DNA from: a virus
Reading direction: 5' to 3' (one strand)
DNA: 42,001 bases
Virus record (IMG/VR): IMGVR_UViG_3300044612_001226
Location: 1 to 42,001 of that record
Positions 1-42,001 of the stretch are shown one piece after another. The notes beneath the pieces are model-generated. The model saw nothing but the letters and a program-made list of their open reading frames with translations. It did not search any database and was not told the DNA's origin. Each line of letters opens with the position of its first letter. Within the stretch, counting starts at the first letter, position 1. A program made the position numbers and the translations under genes.

Positions 1-236
1 ACGGTGAGCATGTGCGCGGTACAACTGGCTTGCGTTCTGTCGAACAACTCAGAGAATCATTTGTTCCCGTTAATGTAATGAAGACGATGTTCTACGACAT
101 TACAGCAAAGCACCGACACATTGAGGACACTCTAAGAAAGGACATCGACGGTAACGTATCGGTAAACATTATTAACGAACCGCCTGTACCTCTTGCAGAC
201 CCGTCTGAGGATATGCAGTGCGATAGTTGTCAGTAA
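1..236 (+). CDS. Thioredoxin/glutaredoxin-like protein, 5'-truncated copy
   Basis: This is the C-terminal half of the protein encoded in full at 39236-39715, cut by the window edge. The first full codon is at 3. The retained part lacks the CPNC active site but keeps the C-terminal CDSC pair. It differs from the second copy only by four silent substitutions. The stop is one base before the next start codon. See the full copy for function. Confidence 0.9.
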   Translation, partial: GEHVRGTTGLRSVEQLRESFVPVNVMKTMFYDITAKHRHIEDTLRKDIDGNVSVNIINEPPVPLADPSEDMQCDSCQ

Positions 237-237
237 C

Positions 238-516
238 ATGCAAACTCACACAGAAAATAAAAGTGTCTCGAAAACGTATTCACTTGTACCAAACCTGTTA
301 ATTGCCGTTAATCCACTAACGGGAAAACGATTTGCGCGCGTATCAATTAACTACGAATCAAGTGAAGGAACGTCTGGTCTTGATGAAGTGTTTATCTCAG
401 AAGAAGATTTTGACGTATTCTATTCTGAGTACAACTCAGACGAGTATCTTTTGAGGTTAGTAAAGCCAGGGGTTGACGTTACTGAAGGAGATGTCAAGAA
501 CTTTATTGAGGAATGA
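238..516 (+). CDS. Hypothetical protein, 92 aa
   Basis: The protein is acidic and has no membrane segment or recognisable motif. I chose ATG 238, one base after the preceding stop. The longer frame from 193 would overlap the thioredoxin-like gene by 44 bases and adds an unlikely N-terminus. The stop overlaps the start of the holin gene by four bases (ATGA), so the two are translationally coupled. It belongs to the small operon thioredoxin-like, this protein, holin, lysin. The function is unknown. Confidence 0.75.
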   Translation: MQTHTENKSVSKTYSLVPNLLIAVNPLTGKRFARVSINYESSEGTSGLDEVFISEEDFDVFYSEYNSDEYLLRLVKPGVDVTEGDVKNFIEE

Positions 517-821
517 AAAACAATATGGAGTTTGACACAAAGCACACTTTTATACTTATAGCCGCTATTGGCGGTATCGCAAAACACCTGTCTGAGTACT
601 TAAAAGGCTCCACATTCAGAATCAGACAACTGATTGCGAACACTATTGTAAGCGGTTTTTCGGGATACATTTTTGCGGAAGCGGCATACCAAATGAATCC
701 AGAATGGTCTCACGTAGCGGCTGGTATTGGAGGTTACATGGGCGCACAGGCATTGGACTTTGTTTTTTACGTTATTAAAGAAAGATTTGATAAGAACAAA
801 TGTCAACCAGATTTGAAGTAA
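513..821 (+). CDS. Putative holin, 102 aa
   Basis: This is a small protein with three hydrophobic stretches, at about residues 9-25, 43-60 and 66-88. The last two are rich in glycine and alanine, and the C-terminus is short and charged. That layout fits class I holins of the LydA type, which form inner-membrane lesions and release the endolysin. It sits directly upstream of the lysin gene and overlaps it by 22 bases, the usual holin-lysin order. The start overlaps the previous stop (ATGA). The holin call rests on topology and context, so another small membrane protein is possible. Confidence 0.65.
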   Translation: MKNNMEFDTKHTFILIAAIGGIAKHLSEYLKGSTFRIRQLIANTIVSGFSGYIFAEAAYQMNPEWSHVAAGIGGYMGAQALDFVFYVIKERFDKNKCQPDLK

Positions 822-1801
822 ATAAAGTACTATCGGTACAACTGTACACAAATTCTAAGTTCAACTGGAGCAAGAAGTTTATTGCGATTAACGCATACCT
901 TGCAGAACATGCGTCTTTAAAGTGCGAGTTTGAAGTTAAACCATTTGATACTTCAAAGGTAAAGATTTCTGGTGAACACGTAGATAAGTCATGGTTTGAT
1001 ACCGCGGTAACGGCAAACTCAACAGCAGATGTTGTCTGTCTACACATCGACAGAAAGACATGGACAGCACTTGGAGGAAAGAAAGAAAACAACGGTAGAT
1101 ACTTTGTAGACAAAGACGGTGTATCTGAGTTCTATGTTGTAGCAGACGAGAAGCAAACAAAGAATCGCGGTCGCAAGTGGGATATGTTTGTACATACATT
1201 TATGCACGAACTATGTCACGCACTCTACTCACGTGGAGGACAACCTCTCAAGTCAATCGTTCTTGATGAGCAATTTATCGCTGGAACAGATAACACACAC
1301 TACTTCGATAAGGTGAAGAAGAATCTTGACCTCGTGTGGCCTGACATTACATTCCTTAAAGAGTCAAAGAGCGTAATTGCTCGTGTTGTCGATTCGTTGA
1401 AGTCTGCTTTCAATAAGCCAACAATCTCTCAGTTTGCAGAAGCAATTAAAGAGTTTGAGGGTTGGTTTGCTCCTGGAACAAACGGTTACCCAAAGGGTTC
1501 GGTATCGTACCGCAACAACAACCCAGGCAATCTCCGTTGGTCTCCATTTGAATCAGGAAGCGTAAACAACTTCTCTGTATTTAAAACATACGACGACGGT
1601 TGGAAAGCACTCCTTCATCAAATTAGAATTGCAGTAAACGGCAAGTCGAAAGTATATCGACCTACCGATACTATTCTTCAATTCTTTGAGAAGTACGCAC
1701 CATCGTCAGACAACAACTATCCACACATCTACGCACAATATGTTGCGAAGAAGTTGGGAGTTACAACTGCGTTACGATTGGAGAATCTCCTCGACCAGTA
1801 A
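800..1801 (+). CDS. Two-domain lysin: HExxH protease-like plus NNPGN lytic domain
   Basis: The protein has 333 aa. The N-terminal half (about 1-185) contains HELCH at residues 136-140, the HExxH zinc-protease signature, within a hydrophobic helix context. The C-terminal part (about 215-333) begins with a RNNNPGN block at 238-244 followed by a FKTYDDGW segment. That pattern is typical of phage structural-lysin domains resembling PRD1 P5 and other virion-associated muralytic proteins. A role in cell-wall degradation at lysis or entry is inferred. An HExxH domain could cut peptide cross-links while the second domain cuts glycan or binds wall, but neither activity is proven by sequence. It overlaps the holin by 22 bases and converges with a minus-strand gene over its last 41 bases. 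Confidence 0.7.
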   Translation: MSTRFEVNKVLSVQLYTNSKFNWSKKFIAINAYLAEHASLKCEFEVKPFDTSKVKISGEHVDKSWFDTAVTANSTADVVCLHIDRKTWTALGGKKENNGRYFVDKDGVSEFYVVADEKQTKNRGRKWDMFVHTFMHELCHALYSRGGQPLKSIVLDEQFIAGTDNTHYFDKVKKNLDLVWPDITFLKESKSVIARVVDSLKSAFNKPTISQFAEAIKEFEGWFAPGTNGYPKGSVSYRNNNPGNLRWSPFESGSVNNFSVFKTYDDGWKALLHQIRIAVNGKSKVYRPTDTILQFFEKYAPSSDNNYPHIYAQYVAKKLGVTTALRLENLLDQ

Positions 1802-1964
1802 TACCTTTGTAGGCAATGTAATCAAGGTCTGGTACTGGGAAGTATTGCCCGCACTTGTGGCACTTACGGTACAAAGCACCAACAATACCGATGTGGTCTG
1901 AACATCGAGATGTTTTAACTTCTTGCACCTTCTTTTGCTTGTTAGCGATTCTTCGGAATGACAT
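1761..1964 (-). CDS. Small zinc-ribbon-like protein, 67 aa
   Basis: Translation from ATG 1964 gives a basic N-terminus, then a Cys-x2-His pair and a CHKC motif, four likely zinc ligands spaced as in a small zinc ribbon. A longer frame starting at 2045 would lie inside the upstream gene and is unlikely. The start overlaps the end of the diphosphohydrolase-like gene by 23 bases, and the 3' end overlaps the convergent lysin gene by 41 bases. The short size and overlap lower confidence, but the cysteine motif argues for a real gene. Confidence 0.5.
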   Translation of the reverse strand: MSFRRIANKQKKVQEVKTSRCSDHIGIVGALYRKCHKCGQYFPVPDLDYIAYKGITGRGDSPIVTQL

Positions 1965-2400
1965 TGATATTTTTCTTAACGTACTCTGCTGCTGATATAT
2001 TAAAGAACACCGCCGCTCCATGGTCTTCTTCTGAATCCCATTCATTGAACCACTGCATAAAGTGTCGGAAGGCAGAGGCTTTGAATCTGTCTAACTCTTC
2101 TTGTGAGTTAGCCAACTTCCAATTGTTGTCTCCGTACTTCTCTGCACCACGGGTCATAAGTTCTGCCCAACGCTTGAACATATCCATGTCTACTAGGTCG
2201 TAGCGTACCTTTCCTTCCTGAACATCGCGTCTCATTCCAGACGGATAGTCGATTCTCTCGCCAGAATCCTTAGTCTCGAAATTTGGCGTTTTAAGCATGT
2301 CGATGACCGTAATGGTATCCAAGTACCCAGTACCCGTAGAATCGAAGATTTGACCGAGTTTCGTGTTCTCACGTGTTGTGGTTAAGCCATTTCTAGACAC
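1942..2400 (-). CDS. dATP/dGTP diphosphohydrolase-like protein (DUF5664 family)
   Basis: The conserved core has SGMRRD, EGKVRYDL, TRGAEKYGDNNW and FRHFMQWFNEWDSEEDHGAA blocks. These match the phage family formerly called DUF5664 and annotated as dATP/dGTP diphosphohydrolase (MazZ-related). Such enzymes hydrolyse purine deoxynucleotides and shape the pool during phage replication. The D, E and H residues in the AEKYGDNNW and EEDH blocks are the expected metal-binding positions. I chose GTG 2400, which overlaps the upstream stop by eight bases. ATG 2298 (118 aa) would still contain the whole family core and is a strong alternative. The frame open to 2517 adds a low-complexity, implausible N-terminus. 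Confidence 0.75.
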   Translation of the reverse strand: MSRNGLTTTRENTKLGQIFDSTGTGYLDTITVIDMLKTPNFETKDSGERIDYPSGMRRDVQEGKVRYDLVDMDMFKRWAELMTRGAEKYGDNNWKLANSQEELDRFKASAFRHFMQWFNEWDSEEDHGAAVFFNISAAEYVKKNINVIPKNR

Positions 2401-2617
2401 CGATTTTTGGTTCTTCGAGTTTCCCCTCTTTCGTGAGCCTGTTGAAGTGCTCAACGAGTTCTGGGAGTTGTCCGCGCGTGTAATCTTCTTTTTCGAGGAG
2501 TTTGACATATTTTGCAATTTGTATTCTACTAAACTTCATTCCTGAGACCGCTTTCGACAACCAGACGATTGACGAGACGTTCGGATACCTTTCCTTAAAG
2601 TGATTGAATCGTTTCAT
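2393..2617 (-). CDS. Hypothetical protein, 74 aa
   Basis: A small, basic, probably helical protein from ATG 2617. A hairpin with a T-rich tail lies just upstream and separates it from the metallophosphoesterase gene. Its stop overlaps the GTG start of the diphosphohydrolase-like gene, so the two are probably coupled. No motif is recognised. It competes for the same DNA with an extended version of the downstream gene, and its more regular composition favours it. Confidence 0.6.
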   Translation of the reverse strand: MKRFNHFKERYPNVSSIVWLSKAVSGMKFSRIQIAKYVKLLEKEDYTRGQLPELVEHFNRLTKEGKLEEPKIGV

Positions 2618-8185: not shown

Positions 8186-8231
8186 TTATCCCCATAGCAC
8201 CTATTGGCGAGTAATACAGTGGTGGTAAACT
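8186..8231 (+). promoter_or_regulatory. DnaA-box promoter module of the structured RNA
   Basis: TTATCCCCA (8186-8194), nine bases, TTGGCG (8204-8209), 16 bases, TAAACT (8226-8231). Transcription would begin near 8238 and enter the non-coding stretch before the tRNA genes. Confidence 0.6.
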
Positions 8232-8237
8232 ATTAGT

Positions 8238-8604
8238 TGGTAGCACACGTTCGTACATTTAATCTGTGGCGGTGCGAGTAATCTAGCAGACGAACCACAA
8301 CGGGATTGCGTGGTGATAATGTATCCCTCTCGTTGCCCCACAGACTAAGTGTATGAACAACGTTTTGCCGACATCGGGAAAACGATAATCGAACATCACA
8401 GGGGCGGTCGGTCGTGAGGAAACAAATCGAACACAATACTTCGTAAGCGCGGTAAAGTTCTAAACCCGCGTTCTGTATCGACCCCGCCTGTGGTGTTTGA
8501 GCCACCGTAGTTGCACTTTAATCAAGTAGTAATAAATAATTACTCTATTGCCGATAAATGTGCCGTGGGTTGCTCCCTACCAGTACAATCGTGCAGCTAC
8601 GTAT
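8238..8604 (+). ncRNA. Candidate structured RNA, about 365 nt
   Basis: No convincing reading frame is present, but pairings are dense. They are: GTTCGT/ACGAAC (8249-8254, 8290-8295) with TGTGG/CCACA crossing it as a possible pseudoknot; CTGTGG/CCACAG (8264-8269, 8338-8343) as an alternative; CGTTTT/AAAACG closing CCGA/TCGG (8361-8384); GGCGG and TCG with CGA and CCGCC (8403-8410, 8479-8488) enclosing CGCGG/CCGCG (8448-8452, 8466-8470); and CGTAGTTGCAC with GTGCAGCTACG (8506-8516, 8591-8601), 11 bp with one G-U, enclosing AGTAAT/ATTACT (8528-8544) and GGG/CCC. It does not match tmRNA or RNase P landmarks I know. Confidence 0.5.
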
Positions 8605-8639
8605 TGCCTTGTCGTCTAACGGCAGGACTATATTATGTT
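8605..8639 (+). tRNA. tRNA-Asn(GUU), 5' half
   Basis: Acceptor strand TGCCTTG (8605-8611), D arm GTCT-loop-GGAC with the TAACGG loop (8614-8628), then the anticodon stem strand and loop with anticodon GTT at 8637-8639. The matching 3' half is 740 bases away, at 9346-9381. Acceptor pairing with CGAGGCA is complete with one G-U, and the anticodon stem pairs four of five. Joined, the halves give a 71-nt tRNA with a GTT anticodon followed by two A. Confidence 0.7.
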
Positions 8640-8666
8640 GTAACTATAAACTAGGTACGATATAAT
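8638..8666 (+). promoter_or_regulatory. Promoter of tRNA-Gln
   Basis: TTGTAA (8638-8643), 17 bases, TATAAT (8661-8666). The start site would be one to three bases before the mature tRNA 5' end. The -35 straddles the left junction of the insertion. Confidence 0.8.
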
Positions 8667-9345
8667 ATAGGTATTCCATCGTGGGGTAACGGTAGCCCGC
8701 TAAACTTTGGATTTAGAGATGCGCGTCCGATTCGTGCCGATGGAACAAATATATGCAAAAGAGAAACATTAAAGAGAAGATTATCGAAAGAATTAAACAA
8801 GGAAAAAACCTCCTTGAAATTACAAGAGAATTTAATTGTGCAAAATCGACAGTATCTCACCACGCGAAAAAGATTGGCCATAAATTTCCAAAGAGCAGAC
8901 CATTTGCTATATACAGCAAACTTGACTGGATTCGTGTTCAAGAACTGGTAGACCAAGGAAAGACATTTAACCAAATAAAAAAGGAAATCGGTATCTGTTC
9001 TGCAACCCTCACAAACGCAAAAAAGAGAGGACTTTTCAAAACAAAAAAACTTCCAGTCCAAATGAGTCTAAGTGAACTAGAAGATAACTTTGATGGGAAA
9101 AGAGCCGTATGTCACATAAGAAGACTTTTCAAAAATAAACTAAAAGAATTACACGGTTGCAAATGTTCGATGTGTCAAAACGAGGATTGGCTTGGTAAAA
9201 AACTATCACTAGAACTAGACCATATAGACGGTAATCCGTTTAACAACAAAGCAAGCAACATGCGTCTTATCTGCCCAAATTGTCATAGCATCACAGATAC
9301 ATGGAGAGGTAGAAATACTTTATTAGCAAGAATGAAGAAAGACCA
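8640..9345 (+). mobile_element. tRNA-Gln plus HNH cassette inside tRNA-Asn
   Basis: About 706 bases separate the two halves of the tRNA-Asn gene, entering right after the anticodon. The insert consists almost entirely of a promoter, a complete tRNA-Gln and an HNH endonuclease gene. The stop codon of that gene reads through into the 3' tRNA half. There is little room for a group I or group II catalytic core, so this looks like a homing insertion rather than an ordinary self-splicing intron. Confidence 0.55.
8675..8745 (+). tRNA. tRNA-Gln(UUG)
   Basis: Seven-pair acceptor stem TCCATCG/CGATGGA with U1-A72, as usual for tRNA-Gln. The D arm is GGGT/GCCC with a TAACGG loop. A five-pair anticodon stem CTAAA/TTTAG carries the loop CTTTGGA, so the anticodon TTG is at 8707-8709. 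The variable loop has four bases. The T arm is GCGCG/CGTGC with loop TCCGATT, where C replaces the usual T55. The discriminator is A and CCA is not encoded. Gene length is 71 bases. It is the first element of the cassette that interrupts tRNA-Asn. Confidence 0.85.
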
Positions 9346-9352
9346 AAAATAG
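8753..9352 (+). CDS. HNH homing-type endonuclease with N-terminal HTH, 199 aa
   Basis: The N-terminal 100 residues contain two helix-turn-helix-like units (around 9-40 and 60-88), each with an isoleucine- and lysine-rich recognition helix. The C-terminal part is an HNH module: CSMC, then LELDHIDGNPFNNKASNMRL, then CPNCH. DH is the catalytic pair, N the middle residue and the cysteines bind zinc. Such HTH-HNH proteins are typical mobile endonucleases of phages. It starts seven bases after tRNA-Gln, and its stop codon TAG is part of the anticodon stem of the 3' tRNA-Asn half. That placement suggests the enzyme spreads this cassette into tRNA-Asn genes. Confidence 0.85.
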   Translation: MQKRNIKEKIIERIKQGKNLLEITREFNCAKSTVSHHAKKIGHKFPKSRPFAIYSKLDWIRVQELVDQGKTFNQIKKEIGICSATLTNAKKRGLFKTKKLPVQMSLSELEDNFDGKRAVCHIRRLFKNKLKELHGCKCSMCQNEDWLGKKLSLELDHIDGNPFNNKASNMRLICPNCHSITDTWRGRNTLLARMKKDQK

Positions 9353-9381
9353 TCATCGTGGTTCGATTCCATGCGAGGCAA
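9346..9381 (+). tRNA. tRNA-Asn(GUU), 3' half
   Basis: Two loop A, anticodon stem strand AATAG (9348-9352, shared with the HNH stop codon), a four-base variable loop, T arm CGTGG/CCATG with canonical loop TTCGATT (9357-9373), acceptor strand CGAGGCA (9374-9380) and discriminator A. CCA is not encoded. It pairs with the 5' half at 8605-8639 and with no other nearby sequence. Confidence 0.7.
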
Positions 9382-12331: not shown

Positions 12332-13789
12332 ATGAAGAAAAAGATTCTTGTTGGTAATGAAGCACGCGCAGCATTAATGGCAGGTATTAACTTTGTGGGC
12401 GATACACTCGGTAGAACACTTGGTCCCAACGGTAAGAATGCAATCTACGGCGATAGATTCCGTACACCGACCATCACAAACGATGGTGTATCAATCGCAA
12501 AGCAAATCGAACTAACCGACGACGCACAGAATCTCGGTGCTAAGACCATGATTGAAGTGTGCCAGAAGACCAATGACCGTGCAGGAGACGGAACAACAAC
12601 GTCCGCTGTTATCGCACAGAAACTCGCGAACACAGTTAATGACTTGATTACAGATAACGGATTGGTAATCACAAAGAAGCCAAACGTCTTGGAGATTCGC
12701 ACCAAGATTGAGAAGGAGCGCGAACAGGTCGAGGAACTGTTGAATAAGTCAGCACGTCCTTTGAAGAAAGGTGAGTTGGCTACTATTGGTCGTGTATCAA
12801 TGGAGAACGAAGAACTTGGAAAATTAGTTGCAGATGTTGTCGAGAAGGTTGGTGCAGATGGTTCAGTAAACGTCGAGGAAGCAGAACAGAAGGATATAAC
12901 GGTTGAATACAAAGAAGGTATTGAGATTCCTCTTGGACTCTACACACCGTTGATGGCGAACAAGAAAGACGGAACATTCAAGCAAGACAATCCTAAGATT
13001 ATCGTAACGAGCCACAAACTCACAGCGATTGCACAGGTTCAGAAGATTGCGCAAGAGGTTGCGAACACTACACCTGAGTCGGCACTCATTATTGTTGCCC
13101 CCGAGTTTGACCCCTCAATTATTGCCGCGTGTGTAGCAAACAAGATTCACCAAGGCTTTGTAATCCTGCCTGTTCGATACTATGAGTCATACCAAATGGA
13201 ACTCGCAGAAGATATTGCGGCTAAGACTGGAGCAACATTTATTCGCCGTGAGACAGACCGTCTTGAAGATGTACTTCTGTCGTCGCTTGGAACGTGCGAT
13301 TCTCTTTCAGTTGTTGATGACCGCACAACATTTATTGGTGCGAAAGCAGATGTATCAGAGCAAATCAAAAAGATTAAGGCGGTAAAGCCAAAGTCAGAAT
13401 ACGATAAGGTTCAGCAAGAAGAGCGCATCGCTTCATTGAAGGGCATGGTTGCAACAATTAAGGTAGGCGCAAAGACTCATCAAGAGCGTACCTATTTGAA
13501 GTTGAAGATAGATGATGCTGTGTGCGCATGTAAGATGGCTGCACGTTCTGGTGTTGTGCGTGGTGGTGGACTTGCTCTATACAATATCGCAGACCAATTC
13601 GAGATTCTTAAAGACGCTCTCAAAGCACCGCATGAAAAGATTAAGGAGAACGGAACAAAGACAATCCCTGAATGGGTGTATGACCCTGTTGATTCAGTAA
13701 AGGTTGGTTTGGAAAACGCCTGTTCAGTTGCGTCGTTGGTACTTACCACAGACATTCTTATCGCAGAAGTAGAAGATGAAAAAGAATAA
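12332..13789 (+). CDS. GroEL-like chaperonin, 485 aa
   Basis: The nucleotide-binding motifs of group I chaperonins are intact: TLGPNGKN at 29-36, DGVSIAK from 51, GDGTTT at 85-90, a KIDDA block with the expected catalytic Asp, and RGGGLAL near 408. The apical domain lies roughly between residues 175 and 360. The protein is about 60 residues shorter than bacterial GroEL, and its C-terminus ends in acidic residues instead of a GGM tail. Phage chaperonins fold the capsid or other virion proteins, alone or with host GroES. No GroES-like gene is seen here. It may work without a co-chaperonin or use the host's. Confidence 0.9.
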   Translation: MKKKILVGNEARAALMAGINFVGDTLGRTLGPNGKNAIYGDRFRTPTITNDGVSIAKQIELTDDAQNLGAKTMIEVCQKTNDRAGDGTTTSAVIAQKLANTVNDLITDNGLVITKKPNVLEIRTKIEKEREQVEELLNKSARPLKKGELATIGRVSMENEELGKLVADVVEKVGADGSVNVEEAEQKDITVEYKEGIEIPLGLYTPLMANKKDGTFKQDNPKIIVTSHKLTAIAQVQKIAQEVANTTPESALIIVAPEFDPSIIAACVANKIHQGFVILPVRYYESYQMELAEDIAAKTGATFIRRETDRLEDVLLSSLGTCDSLSVVDDRTTFIGAKADVSEQIKKIKAVKPKSEYDKVQQEERIASLKGMVATIKVGAKTHQERTYLKLKIDDAVCACKMAARSGVVRGGGLALYNIADQFEILKDALKAPHEKIKENGTKTIPEWVYDPVDSVKVGLENACSVASLVLTTDILIAEVEDEKE

Positions 13790-39235: not shown

Positions 39236-39715
39236 ATGGAACAACTCACAACGCTTGCAGAAATAAAAGCGGCAATCGCAACAGGTAGGACCATTATTAT
39301 TTTCTCGAAGGAGAATTGCCCGAACTGTACCATCACCAAGGCAAATATTGAGAAAATTCAACAAGAAGCAACCGACGTTGTTTTCTACGAAGTAAAAGCG
39401 ATTCAAGAGGATAACGAAATTAACCGTTCGTTCTTGCCTAGAAAGAACTTTATGTTCCCCGTTATTCACTCGTTTGCAAACGGTGAGCATGTGCGCGGTA
39501 CAACTGGCTTGCGTTCTGTCGAACAACTAAGGGAATCGTTTGTTCCCGTTAATGTAATGAAGACGATGTTCTACGACATTACAGCAAAGCATCGACACAT
39601 TGAGGACACTCTAAGAAAGGACATCGACGGTAACGTATCGGTAAACATTATTAACGAACCGCCTGTACCTCTTGCAGACCCGTCTGAGGATATGCAGTGC
39701 GATAGTTGTCAGTAA
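39236..39715 (+). CDS. Thioredoxin/glutaredoxin-like protein, 159 aa (complete copy)
   Basis: A thioredoxin-fold start with strand TIIIFS, the active site CPNC at 28-31, and a cis-proline in MFPVIHSF at 75 followed by a GEHVRGTTG turn as in glutaredoxins. A further 65-residue extension ends in CDSC, a second redox pair or metal site at 155-158. It would exchange or form disulfides in the cytoplasm. It begins 18 bases after the cysteine-rich fibre gene, so assisting fibre disulfides is a reasonable inference; supplying electrons to a reductase is an alternative. Its 3' part recurs at 1-236. Confidence 0.8.
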   Translation: MEQLTTLAEIKAAIATGRTIIIFSKENCPNCTITKANIEKIQQEATDVVFYEVKAIQEDNEINRSFLPRKNFMFPVIHSFANGEHVRGTTGLRSVEQLRESFVPVNVMKTMFYDITAKHRHIEDTLRKDIDGNVSVNIINEPPVPLADPSEDMQCDSCQ

Positions 39716-39716
39716 C

Positions 39717-39995
39717 ATGCAAACTCACACAGAAAATAAAAGTGTCTCGAAAACGTATTCACTTGTACCAAACCTGTTAATTGCCGTTAATCCACTAACG
39801 GGAAAACGATTTGCGCGCGTATCAATTAACTACGAATCAAGTGAAGGAACGTCTGGTCTTGATGAAGTGTTTATCTCAGAAGAAGATTTTGACGTATTCT
39901 ATTCTGAGTACAACTCAGACGAGTATCTTTTGAGGTTAGTAAAGCCAGGGGTTGACGTTACTGAAGGAGATGTCAAGAACTTTATTGAGGAATGA
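39717..39995 (+). CDS. Hypothetical protein, 92 aa (copy 2)
   Basis: Identical in sequence to the product at 238-516. Here its true upstream neighbour, the complete thioredoxin-like gene, is visible one base away. Confidence 0.75.
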   Translation: MQTHTENKSVSKTYSLVPNLLIAVNPLTGKRFARVSINYESSEGTSGLDEVFISEEDFDVFYSEYNSDEYLLRLVKPGVDVTEGDVKNFIEE

Positions 39996-40300
39996 AAAAC
40001 AATATGGAGTTTGACACAAAGCACACTTTTATACTTATAGCCGCTATTGGCGGTATCGCAAAACACCTGTCTGAGTACTTAAAAGGCTCCACATTCAGAA
40101 TCAGACAACTGATTGCGAACACTATTGTAAGCGGTTTTTCGGGATACATTTTTGCGGAAGCGGCATACCAAATGAATCCAGAATGGTCTCACGTAGCGGC
40201 TGGTATTGGAGGTTACATGGGCGCACAGGCATTGGACTTTGTTTTTTACGTTATTAAAGAAAGATTTGATAAGAACAAATGTCAACCAGATTTGAAGTAA
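39992..40300 (+). CDS. Putative holin (copy 2)
   Basis: Same protein as 513-821: three hydrophobic segments and an ATGA overlap with the gene before it. Confidence 0.65.
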   Translation: MKNNMEFDTKHTFILIAAIGGIAKHLSEYLKGSTFRIRQLIANTIVSGFSGYIFAEAAYQMNPEWSHVAAGIGGYMGAQALDFVFYVIKERFDKNKCQPDLK

Positions 40301-41280
40301 ATAAAGTACTATCGGTACAACTGTACACAAATTCTAAGTTCAACTGGAGCAAGAAGTTTATTGCGATTAACGCATACCTTGCAGAACATGCGTCTTTAAA
40401 GTGCGAGTTTGAAGTTAAACCATTTGATACTTCAAAGGTAAAGATTTCTGGTGAACACGTAGATAAGTCATGGTTTGATACCGCGGTAACGGCAAACTCA
40501 ACAGCAGATGTTGTCTGTCTACACATCGACAGAAAGACATGGACAGCACTTGGAGGAAAGAAAGAAAACAACGGTAGATACTTTGTAGACAAAGACGGTG
40601 TATCTGAGTTCTATGTTGTAGCAGACGAGAAGCAAACAAAGAATCGCGGTCGCAAGTGGGATATGTTTGTACATACATTTATGCACGAACTATGTCACGC
40701 ACTCTACTCACGTGGAGGACAACCTCTCAAGTCAATCGTTCTTGATGAGCAATTTATCGCTGGAACAGATAACACACACTACTTCGATAAGGTGAAGAAG
40801 AATCTTGACCTCGTGTGGCCTGACATTACATTCCTTAAAGAGTCAAAGAGCGTAATTGCTCGTGTTGTCGATTCGTTGAAGTCTGCTTTCAATAAGCCAA
40901 CAATCTCTCAGTTTGCAGAAGCAATTAAAGAGTTTGAGGGTTGGTTTGCTCCTGGAACAAACGGTTACCCAAAGGGTTCGGTATCGTACCGCAACAACAA
41001 CCCAGGCAATCTCCGTTGGTCTCCATTTGAATCAGGAAGCGTAAACAACTTCTCTGTATTTAAAACATACGACGACGGTTGGAAAGCACTCCTTCATCAA
41101 ATTAGAATTGCAGTAAACGGCAAGTCGAAAGTATATCGACCTACCGATACTATTCTTCAATTCTTTGAGAAGTACGCACCATCGTCAGACAACAACTATC
41201 CACACATCTACGCACAATATGTTGCGAAGAAGTTGGGAGTTACAACTGCGTTACGATTGGAGAATCTCCTCGACCAGTAA
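40279..41280 (+). CDS. Two-domain lysin (copy 2)
   Basis: Same protein as 800-1801, with HELCH at 136-140 and RNNNPGN at 238-244. Confidence 0.7.
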   Translation: MSTRFEVNKVLSVQLYTNSKFNWSKKFIAINAYLAEHASLKCEFEVKPFDTSKVKISGEHVDKSWFDTAVTANSTADVVCLHIDRKTWTALGGKKENNGRYFVDKDGVSEFYVVADEKQTKNRGRKWDMFVHTFMHELCHALYSRGGQPLKSIVLDEQFIAGTDNTHYFDKVKKNLDLVWPDITFLKESKSVIARVVDSLKSAFNKPTISQFAEAIKEFEGWFAPGTNGYPKGSVSYRNNNPGNLRWSPFESGSVNNFSVFKTYDDGWKALLHQIRIAVNGKSKVYRPTDTILQFFEKYAPSSDNNYPHIYAQYVAKKLGVTTALRLENLLDQ

Positions 41281-41443
41281 TACCTTTGTAGGCAATGTAA
41301 TCAAGGTCTGGTACTGGGAAGTATTGCCCGCACTTGTGGCACTTACGGTACAAAGCACCAACAATACCGATGTGGTCTGAACATCGAGATGTTTTAACTT
41401 CTTGCACCTTCTTTTGCTTGTTAGCGATTCTTCGGAATGACAT
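41240..41443 (-). CDS. Small zinc-ribbon-like protein (copy 2)
   Basis: Same protein as 1761-1964, convergent with the lysin. Confidence 0.5.
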   Translation of the reverse strand: MSFRRIANKQKKVQEVKTSRCSDHIGIVGALYRKCHKCGQYFPVPDLDYIAYKGITGRGDSPIVTQL

Positions 41444-41879
41444 TGATATTTTTCTTAACGTACTCTGCTGCTGATATATTAAAGAACACCGCCGCTCCAT
41501 GGTCTTCTTCTGAATCCCATTCATTGAACCACTGCATAAAGTGTCGGAAGGCAGAGGCTTTGAATCTGTCTAACTCTTCTTGTGAGTTAGCCAACTTCCA
41601 ATTGTTGTCTCCGTACTTCTCTGCACCACGGGTCATAAGTTCTGCCCAACGCTTGAACATATCCATGTCTACTAGGTCGTAGCGTACCTTTCCTTCCTGA
41701 ACATCGCGTCTCATTCCAGACGGATAGTCGATTCTCTCGCCAGAATCCTTAGTCTCGAAATTTGGCGTTTTAAGCATGTCGATGACCGTAATGGTATCCA
41801 AGTACCCAGTACCCGTAGAATCGAAGATTTGACCGAGTTTCGTGTTCTCACGTGTTGTGGTTAAGCCATTTCTAGACAC
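41421..41879 (-). CDS. dATP/dGTP diphosphohydrolase-like protein (copy 2)
   Basis: Same protein as 1942-2400. The alternative ATG start would be at 41777. Confidence 0.75.
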   Translation of the reverse strand: MSRNGLTTTRENTKLGQIFDSTGTGYLDTITVIDMLKTPNFETKDSGERIDYPSGMRRDVQEGKVRYDLVDMDMFKRWAELMTRGAEKYGDNNWKLANSQEELDRFKASAFRHFMQWFNEWDSEEDHGAAVFFNISAAEYVKKNINVIPKNR

Positions 41880-42001
41880 CGATTTTTGGTTCTTCGAGTT
41901 TCCCCTCTTTCGTGAGCCTGTTGAAGTGCTCAACGAGTTCTGGGAGTTGTCCGCGCGTGTAATCTTCTTTTTCGAGGAGTTTGACATATTTTGCAATTTG
42001 T
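41872..42001 (-). CDS. Hypothetical 74-aa protein, truncated by the window end (copy 2)
   Basis: Matches the C-terminal part of 2393-2617. Its start lies beyond the window. Confidence 0.6.
   Translation of the reverse strand, partial: QIAKYVKLLEKEDYTRGQLPELVEHFNRLTKEGKLEEPKIGV

What the first reader, a model, noticed from the sequence alone, without database searches (positions are those of the whole stretch)
8605..9381. tRNA-Asn split after its anticodon by a tRNA-Gln plus HNH cassette
The 5' half (8605-8639) and 3' half (9346-9381) of a tRNA with anticodon GTT pair in the acceptor (7 bp, one G-U) and anticodon stem. They are separated by about 706 bp holding a promoter, a full tRNA-Gln(UUG) and an HTH-HNH endonuclease whose stop codon lies inside the 3' half. 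Almost no sequence is left for a self-splicing core, so this is not an ordinary group I intron. It may be a homing cassette that carries a replacement tRNA, or a tRNA whose halves are joined in trans.
Basis: partly seen in the sequence, partly recalled or inferred. Interest (0 to 1): 0.85.

Follow-up and report, generated by a model that had tools for sequence, protein, structure and literature searches.

The report
Selfish nuclease cassette carrying spare tRNA
In this phage a gene-cutting selfish element has split a tRNA-Gln gene in two and brought along its own intact tRNA-Gln to replace it, and related phages show the same site still empty, so this looks like a natural 'cut the target, supply the spare' element.

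Summary
The two outer tRNA halves are real, but they are remains of a tRNA-Gln, not a tRNA-Asn. An uninterrupted homologue of both halves (L023) is tRNA-Gln(UUG). The 'GTT anticodon' is promoter/hairpin sequence. Between the halves lies a cassette: promoter, complete tRNA-Gln(UUG), HTH-HNH nuclease. Rfam finds no group I core in it, although the same search finds group I introns in control loci L061 and L071.

Orthologous cassettes (HNH 41-42% identical) occur in L026, L027 and L028. Around L027, 65 of 80 relatives carry an intact tRNA-Gln and no HNH at that site: empty sites. Empty versus filled shows insertion after the D-stem GGAC (position 25), resuming at position 32, with six bases of the anticodon stem lost. 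The L027 and L028 cassettes are identical over 661 bp, while their flanks are 81-97% identical and derive from different target alleles, as recent homing predicts.

Elsewhere HNH plus tRNA-Leu(UAG) has replaced the anticodon arm of a tRNA-Leu(UAG) (L011).

Best reading: a free-standing HNH homing element that breaks a tRNA gene and supplies a same-isoacceptor replacement. The outer halves are dead relics, neither spliced nor trans-joined. Cleavage and charging are untested.

The parts
8605..8628 (+). 5' relic of the broken target tRNA-Gln (acceptor 5' strand, D-arm, ends GGAC)
   Evidence: 24/24 identical to the start of the uninterrupted tRNA-Gln(TTG) in L023; same end point in L027 against its empty relatives
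8628..8670 (+). Left end of the cassette: 15-bp inverted repeat (8628-8642/8656-8670) overlapping a promoter-like -35 TTGTAA (8638-8643) and -10 TATAAT (8661-8666), spacer 17
   Evidence: -10-like hexamers also sit in this place in L026 and L027/L028. Consensus match only, activity not tested
8675..8746 (+). Replacement tRNA-Gln(UUG), complete
   Evidence: ARAGORN; Rfam RF00005, 56.4 bits
8753..9352 (+). HTH-HNH homing endonuclease (199 aa); HTH at about aa 7-40, HNH core at about aa 122-189
   Evidence: Pfam HTH/HNH, mostly below the curated cut-off; PHROG 10822 HNH endonuclease E=1.5e-22; AlphaFold model with confident HNH core
9353..9381 (+). 3' relic of the broken target tRNA-Gln (T-arm, acceptor 3' strand, discriminator A; no CCA encoded)
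   Evidence: 25/27 match to L023; 7/7 acceptor pairs with 8605-8611; four changes and a mispaired T-stem in the sibling L002

Best explanation
This is a free-standing (non-intron) homing element of about 0.72 kb: promoter, replacement tRNA-Gln(UUG), HTH-HNH endonuclease. Its insertion site is the anticodon-arm region of a phage tRNA-Gln gene. Proposed cycle: during co-infection the HNH protein cuts an uninterrupted tRNA-Gln allele between the D-arm and the anticodon arm (inferred). Repair from the cassette-bearing genome copies the cassette into the break (inferred; supported by cassette identity across diverged flanks). The target is left as two dead pieces lacking part or all of the anticodon arm (shown for the L027 pair and L011). 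The tRNA-Gln carried by the cassette, with a different D-arm sequence, restores the same isoacceptor and should not be cut (sequence difference shown, resistance inferred). The logic is natural 'home-and-rescue'. The outer halves are relics, not parts of a working tRNA.
For: Same order of parts in five contigs, HNH 41-42% identical between lineages. 65 empty sites with intact tRNA-Gln and one filled site among 80 relatives of the L027 locus. Exact junctions: after GGAC, before CTTTGACTCCG, six bases lost. L027 and L028: 661 bp cassette identical, adjacent flanks 81-97%, 5' relics of different target alleles. Relic decay in L002, loss of the 3' half in L026. Parallel case in L011: HNH plus tRNA-Leu(TAG) in place of the anticodon arm of a tRNA-Leu(TAG). 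Flanking halves exceed the null: 6 of 93 against 0.04.
Against: No cleavage or homing has been observed. No empty site with the window's own flanks was found; L023 is another phage. The Gln-type cassette was found in only five contigs. L027's two relics come from different target alleles, so recombination after insertion is also involved. The PDB fold search gave no significant match.
Confidence: 0.8

Rival explanations
1. The HNH is a passenger. Phages exchange tRNA-Gln alleles by ordinary recombination, a foreign tRNA-Gln with a neighbouring HNH gene was inserted into the old tRNA, and the change was kept because the new tRNA was useful (for example resistant to a tRNA-cutting host defence). 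Cutting by the HNH played no part.
For: tRNA-Gln alleles of two kinds occur at the L027 locus, 11 of them cassette-type without an HNH.
Against: The cassette boundaries lie inside the tRNA at the same point in separate lineages, and the identical tract between L027 and L028 ends at those boundaries. HNH with a same-isoacceptor tRNA also replaced a tRNA-Leu anticodon arm.
Confidence: 0.13
2. The outer halves are a functional split or intron-containing tRNA, joined by splicing in cis or in trans around the cassette.
For: Acceptor, D and T stems pair.
Against: No group I match at E up to 5 while controls are found. The anticodon-stem 5' strand is deleted in the L027 pair; L026 lacks the 3' half; the L002 T-stem is mispaired; an intact tRNA-Gln with the same anticodon is already present.
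Confidence: 0.03
3. The HNH is aimed at the host's chromosomal tRNA-Gln genes as a weapon, and the phage supplies its own resistant tRNA-Gln.
For: The target D-arm motif is of a common bacterial tRNA-Gln type (own knowledge; not tested here). The cassette carries a differing tRNA-Gln.
Against: The insertion sits in the phage's own tRNA-Gln at a fixed site and moves between phage alleles, the signature of homing. The host is unknown.
Confidence: 0.03

Closest known systems
Fungal mitochondrial mobile ORFs (mORFs) that carry a replacement C-terminus (Allomyces atp6; Glomus atp6, atp9, cox2, nad3; PMC3630166)
   Same: Endonuclease element inserted in a gene, bringing a diverged replacement of the part it cuts off and leaving the native part as a remnant; filled and empty relatives known.
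   Different: Those restore a protein-coding 3' end with LAGLIDADG or GIY-YIG nucleases in mitochondria; here a complete tRNA gene is supplied, with an HNH nuclease, in phages.
SegB of T-even phages (PMC2988022, PMC13096335)
   Same: Free-standing homing endonuclease of a phage tRNA region, with cuts inside tRNA genes.
   Different: GIY-YIG family; sits between tRNA genes rather than inside a broken one; not described as carrying a replacement for its target.
HNH-bearing group I introns in tRNA-Leu (L061, L071 here; group I introns in tRNA genes reviewed in PMC3984707)
   Same: HNH gene of the same superfamily within a tRNA, between paired halves.
   Different: There a self-splicing core restores the tRNA and the anticodon arm is kept; here there is no core and the arm is lost.
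Engineered home-and-rescue gene drive (HomeR, PMC7968924)
   Same: Same logic: nuclease inserted into the gene it breaks, plus a replacement copy that should resist cutting.
   Different: Synthetic Cas9 systems in insects; the phage element would be a natural counterpart acting at co-infection.

Membership tests
Free-standing HNH homing endonuclease (intronless homing) | HNH nuclease with a DNA-binding domain | tested here: met
   PHROG HNH endonuclease E=1.5e-22, HTH matches; HNH core modelled with confidence
Free-standing HNH homing endonuclease (intronless homing) | Present in some and absent from other close relatives at a fixed site | tested here: met
   For the orthologue L027: 65 empty and 1 filled. 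Not available for the window's own flanks
Free-standing HNH homing endonuclease (intronless homing) | Cuts the cassette-free allele and is copied into it | not testable with these tools
   Indirect only: identical cassette, diverged flanks
Group I intron | Catalytic core matching RF00028 | tested here: not met
   No match at E up to 5; positive controls L061 and L071 matched
Group I intron | Exons rejoin to the intact gene | tested here: not met
   In the L027 filled/empty pair six anticodon-arm bases are missing
Trans-spliced split tRNA (archaeal type) | Halves together hold a complete tRNA | tested here: not met
   Anticodon-arm sequence lost in L027; 3' half absent in L026
Trans-spliced split tRNA (archaeal type) | Joined RNA product | not testable with these tools
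   Needs RNA from infected cells
Endonuclease mORF carrying a replacement gene part | Replacement of the disrupted gene function carried next to the nuclease | tested here: met
   Same-isoacceptor complete tRNA in the cassette: Gln/Gln here, Leu(TAG)/Leu(TAG) in L011
Endonuclease mORF carrying a replacement gene part | Protein-coding host gene completed in frame by the insert | tested here: not met
   The host gene is a tRNA and the replacement is a separate, complete gene
IscB/HEARO (RNA-guided HNH) | RuvC domain and HEARO RNA | tested here: not met
   199-aa protein with HTH and HNH matches only; no HEARO match

The most novel reading that the evidence does not exclude
Phage tRNA genes host a general class of natural home-and-rescue elements. 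Different HNH nucleases have each been packaged with a complete replacement tRNA of the isoacceptor they destroy: tRNA-Gln before the nuclease here, tRNA-Leu after it in L011 and L004/L007, and perhaps tRNA-Lys before it with only a 3' tRNA remnant downstream in L015 and L017. Their invasion and later loss would be a main cause of tRNA-allele turnover in phages.
Probability: 0.5. Interest if true: 0.8.

Novelty: new variant of a known kind. Interest (0 to 1): 0.7.

Why it matters
Homing nucleases usually avoid harming their host gene by sitting between genes or inside self-splicing introns and inteins. This element breaks a gene outright and pays with a whole replacement gene, a natural counterpart of engineered home-and-rescue drives. 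It gives a testable reason for HNH genes scattered through phage tRNA clusters, for tRNA fragments next to them, and for swapping of tRNA alleles between close phages. It also warns annotators not to read such halves as exotic split tRNAs.

Tried and rejected
tRNA-Asn identity: rejected (L023 homology; chance-level anticodon pairing). Group I/II intron: no match; positive controls work. HEARO/IscB: no match. DNA search of known phages with the locus: no match. HNH relatives in named phages are all below 60% identity to the window's protein; inspected loci in T5-like, Pakpunavirus, Mooglevirus and T4-like phages show HNH next to tRNAs, but I saw no clear pair of acceptor-matched halves by eye. 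Gln-cassette HNH in bacterial genomes: only distant HNH hits. Window's downstream gene as a probe for empty sites: only the sibling. My first detector required a full D-stem and missed the Leu case; relaxed, so the detector was tuned once after seeing examples. PDB fold search: nothing significant. Literature searches turned up no title or abstract reporting an HNH cassette with a same-isoacceptor tRNA inside a broken tRNA; only five papers were opened, and no preprints and few subscription journals are held.

Full report
OBSERVATION. The sequence at 8605-9381 is as described in outline. ARAGORN and Rfam each find one tRNA in the whole window, a tRNA-Gln(TTG) at 8675-8746. An HTH-HNH reading frame of 199 codons follows at 8753-9352. 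Outside these lie TGCCTTGTCGTCTAACGGCAGGAC (8605-8628) and TCATCGTGGTTCGATTCCATGCGAGGCAA (9353-9381). Acceptor 7/7 (one G-U), D-stem 4/4 and T-stem 5/5 pair; the proposed anticodon stem pairs 4 of 5, all A-U, with 8.3% of 5-mers in the HNH ORF doing as well. The 3' strand of that stem is the end of the HNH coding sequence.

IDENTITY OF THE OUTER tRNA. A scan of IMG/VR for the 5' 24 nt found one contig besides the near-identical sibling of the window: L023, where it begins an uninterrupted tRNA-Gln(TTG) whose 3' part matches our 3' part at 25 of 27 positions. A scan with the 3' part returned tRNA-Gln genes only, apart from the sibling. In the orthologous cassettes L027 and L028 the 3' half still contains the anticodon loop CTTTGAC, anticodon TTG. 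The outer tRNA is therefore a tRNA-Gln, not a tRNA-Asn. The bases read as a GTT anticodon lie in a 15-bp inverted repeat (8628-8642/8656-8670) that overlaps a promoter-like TTGTAA-17-TATAAT just before the inner tRNA.

ORTHOLOGUES AND EMPTY SITES. A profile scan with 16 HNH relatives found three cassettes, L026, L027 and L028, with the same order (5' tRNA-Gln part ending GGAC, or GAAC in L028; -10-like element; complete tRNA-Gln(TTG); HTH-HNH) and 41-42% protein identity over the full length. The gene upstream of L027 was used to fetch 80 related loci. Of these, 66 have a tRNA-Gln(TTG) next to it; one (L107, the L027 contig) carries the cassette and 65 do not. Empty...GTCGTCTAACGGTCGGAC-AACGGA-CTTTGACTCCGTGAATGAAGG...; filled...GTCGTCTAGCGGTAGGAC-[cassette ending in the HNH stop]-CTTTGACTCCGTGAATGAAGG.... 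The insertion thus follows tRNA position 25, target sequence resumes at position 32, and the 5' strand of the anticodon stem is gone. The outer pieces cannot give a normal tRNA.

MOBILITY. L027 and L028 are identical over 661 bp covering the cassette plus the first bases of the 3' half, whereas 100-bp blocks of the adjacent flanks are 81-97% identical. The 5' relic of L027 matches one target allele (TGGAGAG.., as in L160) and that of L028 another (TGGCGAG.., as in L105). In the window and its sibling L002 the cassette differs by one base, while the 29-nt 3' relic differs at four positions and has a mispaired T-stem in L002. This is what a recently moved cassette flanked by a decaying relic should look like.

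REPLACEMENT. Inner and outer tRNAs decode the same codon but differ strongly in the D-arm next to the insertion point: inner GTGGGGTAACGGTAGCCC (window) or GTAGTTTAACTGGCAAAAC (L027), targets such as GTCGTCTAACGGTCGGAC. At the L027 locus 49 relatives carry the target-type tRNA and 11 carry a tRNA almost identical to the cassette's without any HNH. These could be leftovers after loss of the nuclease or the source of the cassette tRNA; the data do not decide.

GENERALITY. In L011, HNH followed by a complete tRNA-Leu(TAG) lies between GCGCCTGTGGTGAAATTGGTAG and GTGCTTTACGGCGTGGGGGTTCAAGTCCCTCCAGGCGCACCA. The last 28 bases of that 3' piece are part of an intact tRNA-Leu(TAG) in 40 other contigs, and comparison shows that the 21-nt anticodon-arm stretch was replaced. 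L004/L007 show the same layout by eye. Several HNH genes of phage tRNA arrays are followed at once by a 3' tRNA remnant (L015, L017, L020). Across 93 HNH genes, acceptor-matched orphan halves occur at 6, against a null mean of 0.04; the detector had been relaxed once after a first version missed the Leu case. Two of the six, L061 and L071, are group I introns in tRNA-Leu genes (Rfam E 8.8e-8 and 4.3e-10, below the gathering score), which also shows that the negative result for the window is not for lack of sensitivity.

MECHANISM AND STATUS OF EACH STEP. Shown from sequence: broken target, same-isoacceptor replacement, empty and filled sites, loss of anticodon-arm sequence, cassette identity across diverged flanks. 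Inferred: cutting of the intact tRNA-Gln gene by the HNH protein, copying by recombinational repair in co-infection, resistance of the inner tRNA, promoter activity, charging of the inner tRNA. The protein has predicted HTH helices and a confident HNH core; PDB fold matches were not significant.

COMPARISON. The nearest described design is the fungal mitochondrial mobile ORF that inserts in a gene and supplies a foreign C-terminus, leaving the native end as a remnant (PMC3630166). In phages, SegB is a free-standing nuclease of the tRNA region that cuts in tRNA genes, but it sits between genes and is GIY-YIG (PMC2988022, PMC13096335). Engineered home-and-rescue drives share the logic (PMC7968924). 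In the papers opened and the search listings I found no report of an HNH cassette with a complete same-isoacceptor tRNA inside a broken tRNA gene, but the library lacks most subscription journals.

LIMITS. No empty site with the window's own flanks was found. L026 has lost or never had a 3' half. The Gln-type cassette was found in only five contigs. The host is unknown; the window is a tailed-phage genome of about 39.5 kb with terminase, portal, major head protein and a groEL.

Noticed in passing
window 8215-8545: Intergenic, strongly structured RNA-like region (-119 kcal/mol, z = -6.35) without an Rfam match. It is identical in the sibling L002 except for an exchanged internal module at about 8425-8480. 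An exact-pattern scan found it only in that sibling.
   Followed up: partly
window 1-2522 and 39480-42001: The ends of the record repeat each other (2518 of 2522 bases), so the unit genome is about 39.5 kb.
   Followed up: no
L061:2700-3520, L071:2600-3450, L047:2800-3600: Phage tRNA-Leu genes interrupted by group I introns that carry an HNH gene (Rfam for L061 and L071; L047 by eye).
   Followed up: partly
L105-L184, next to the 193-aa gene: Two unlike tRNA-Gln(TTG) alleles occupy the same locus in close relatives: 49 of the target type, 11 of the cassette type without HNH.
   Followed up: partly
L015:5299-5340, L017:5336-5380, L020:5336-5375: HNH genes in large phage tRNA arrays whose stop codon is followed at once by an orphan 3' tRNA end with CCA; L017 has an intact tRNA-Lys upstream of the HNH.
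   Followed up: partly
window 12332-13789: Phage-encoded GroEL-like chaperonin (PHROG 5725, E=4e-84).
   Followed up: no
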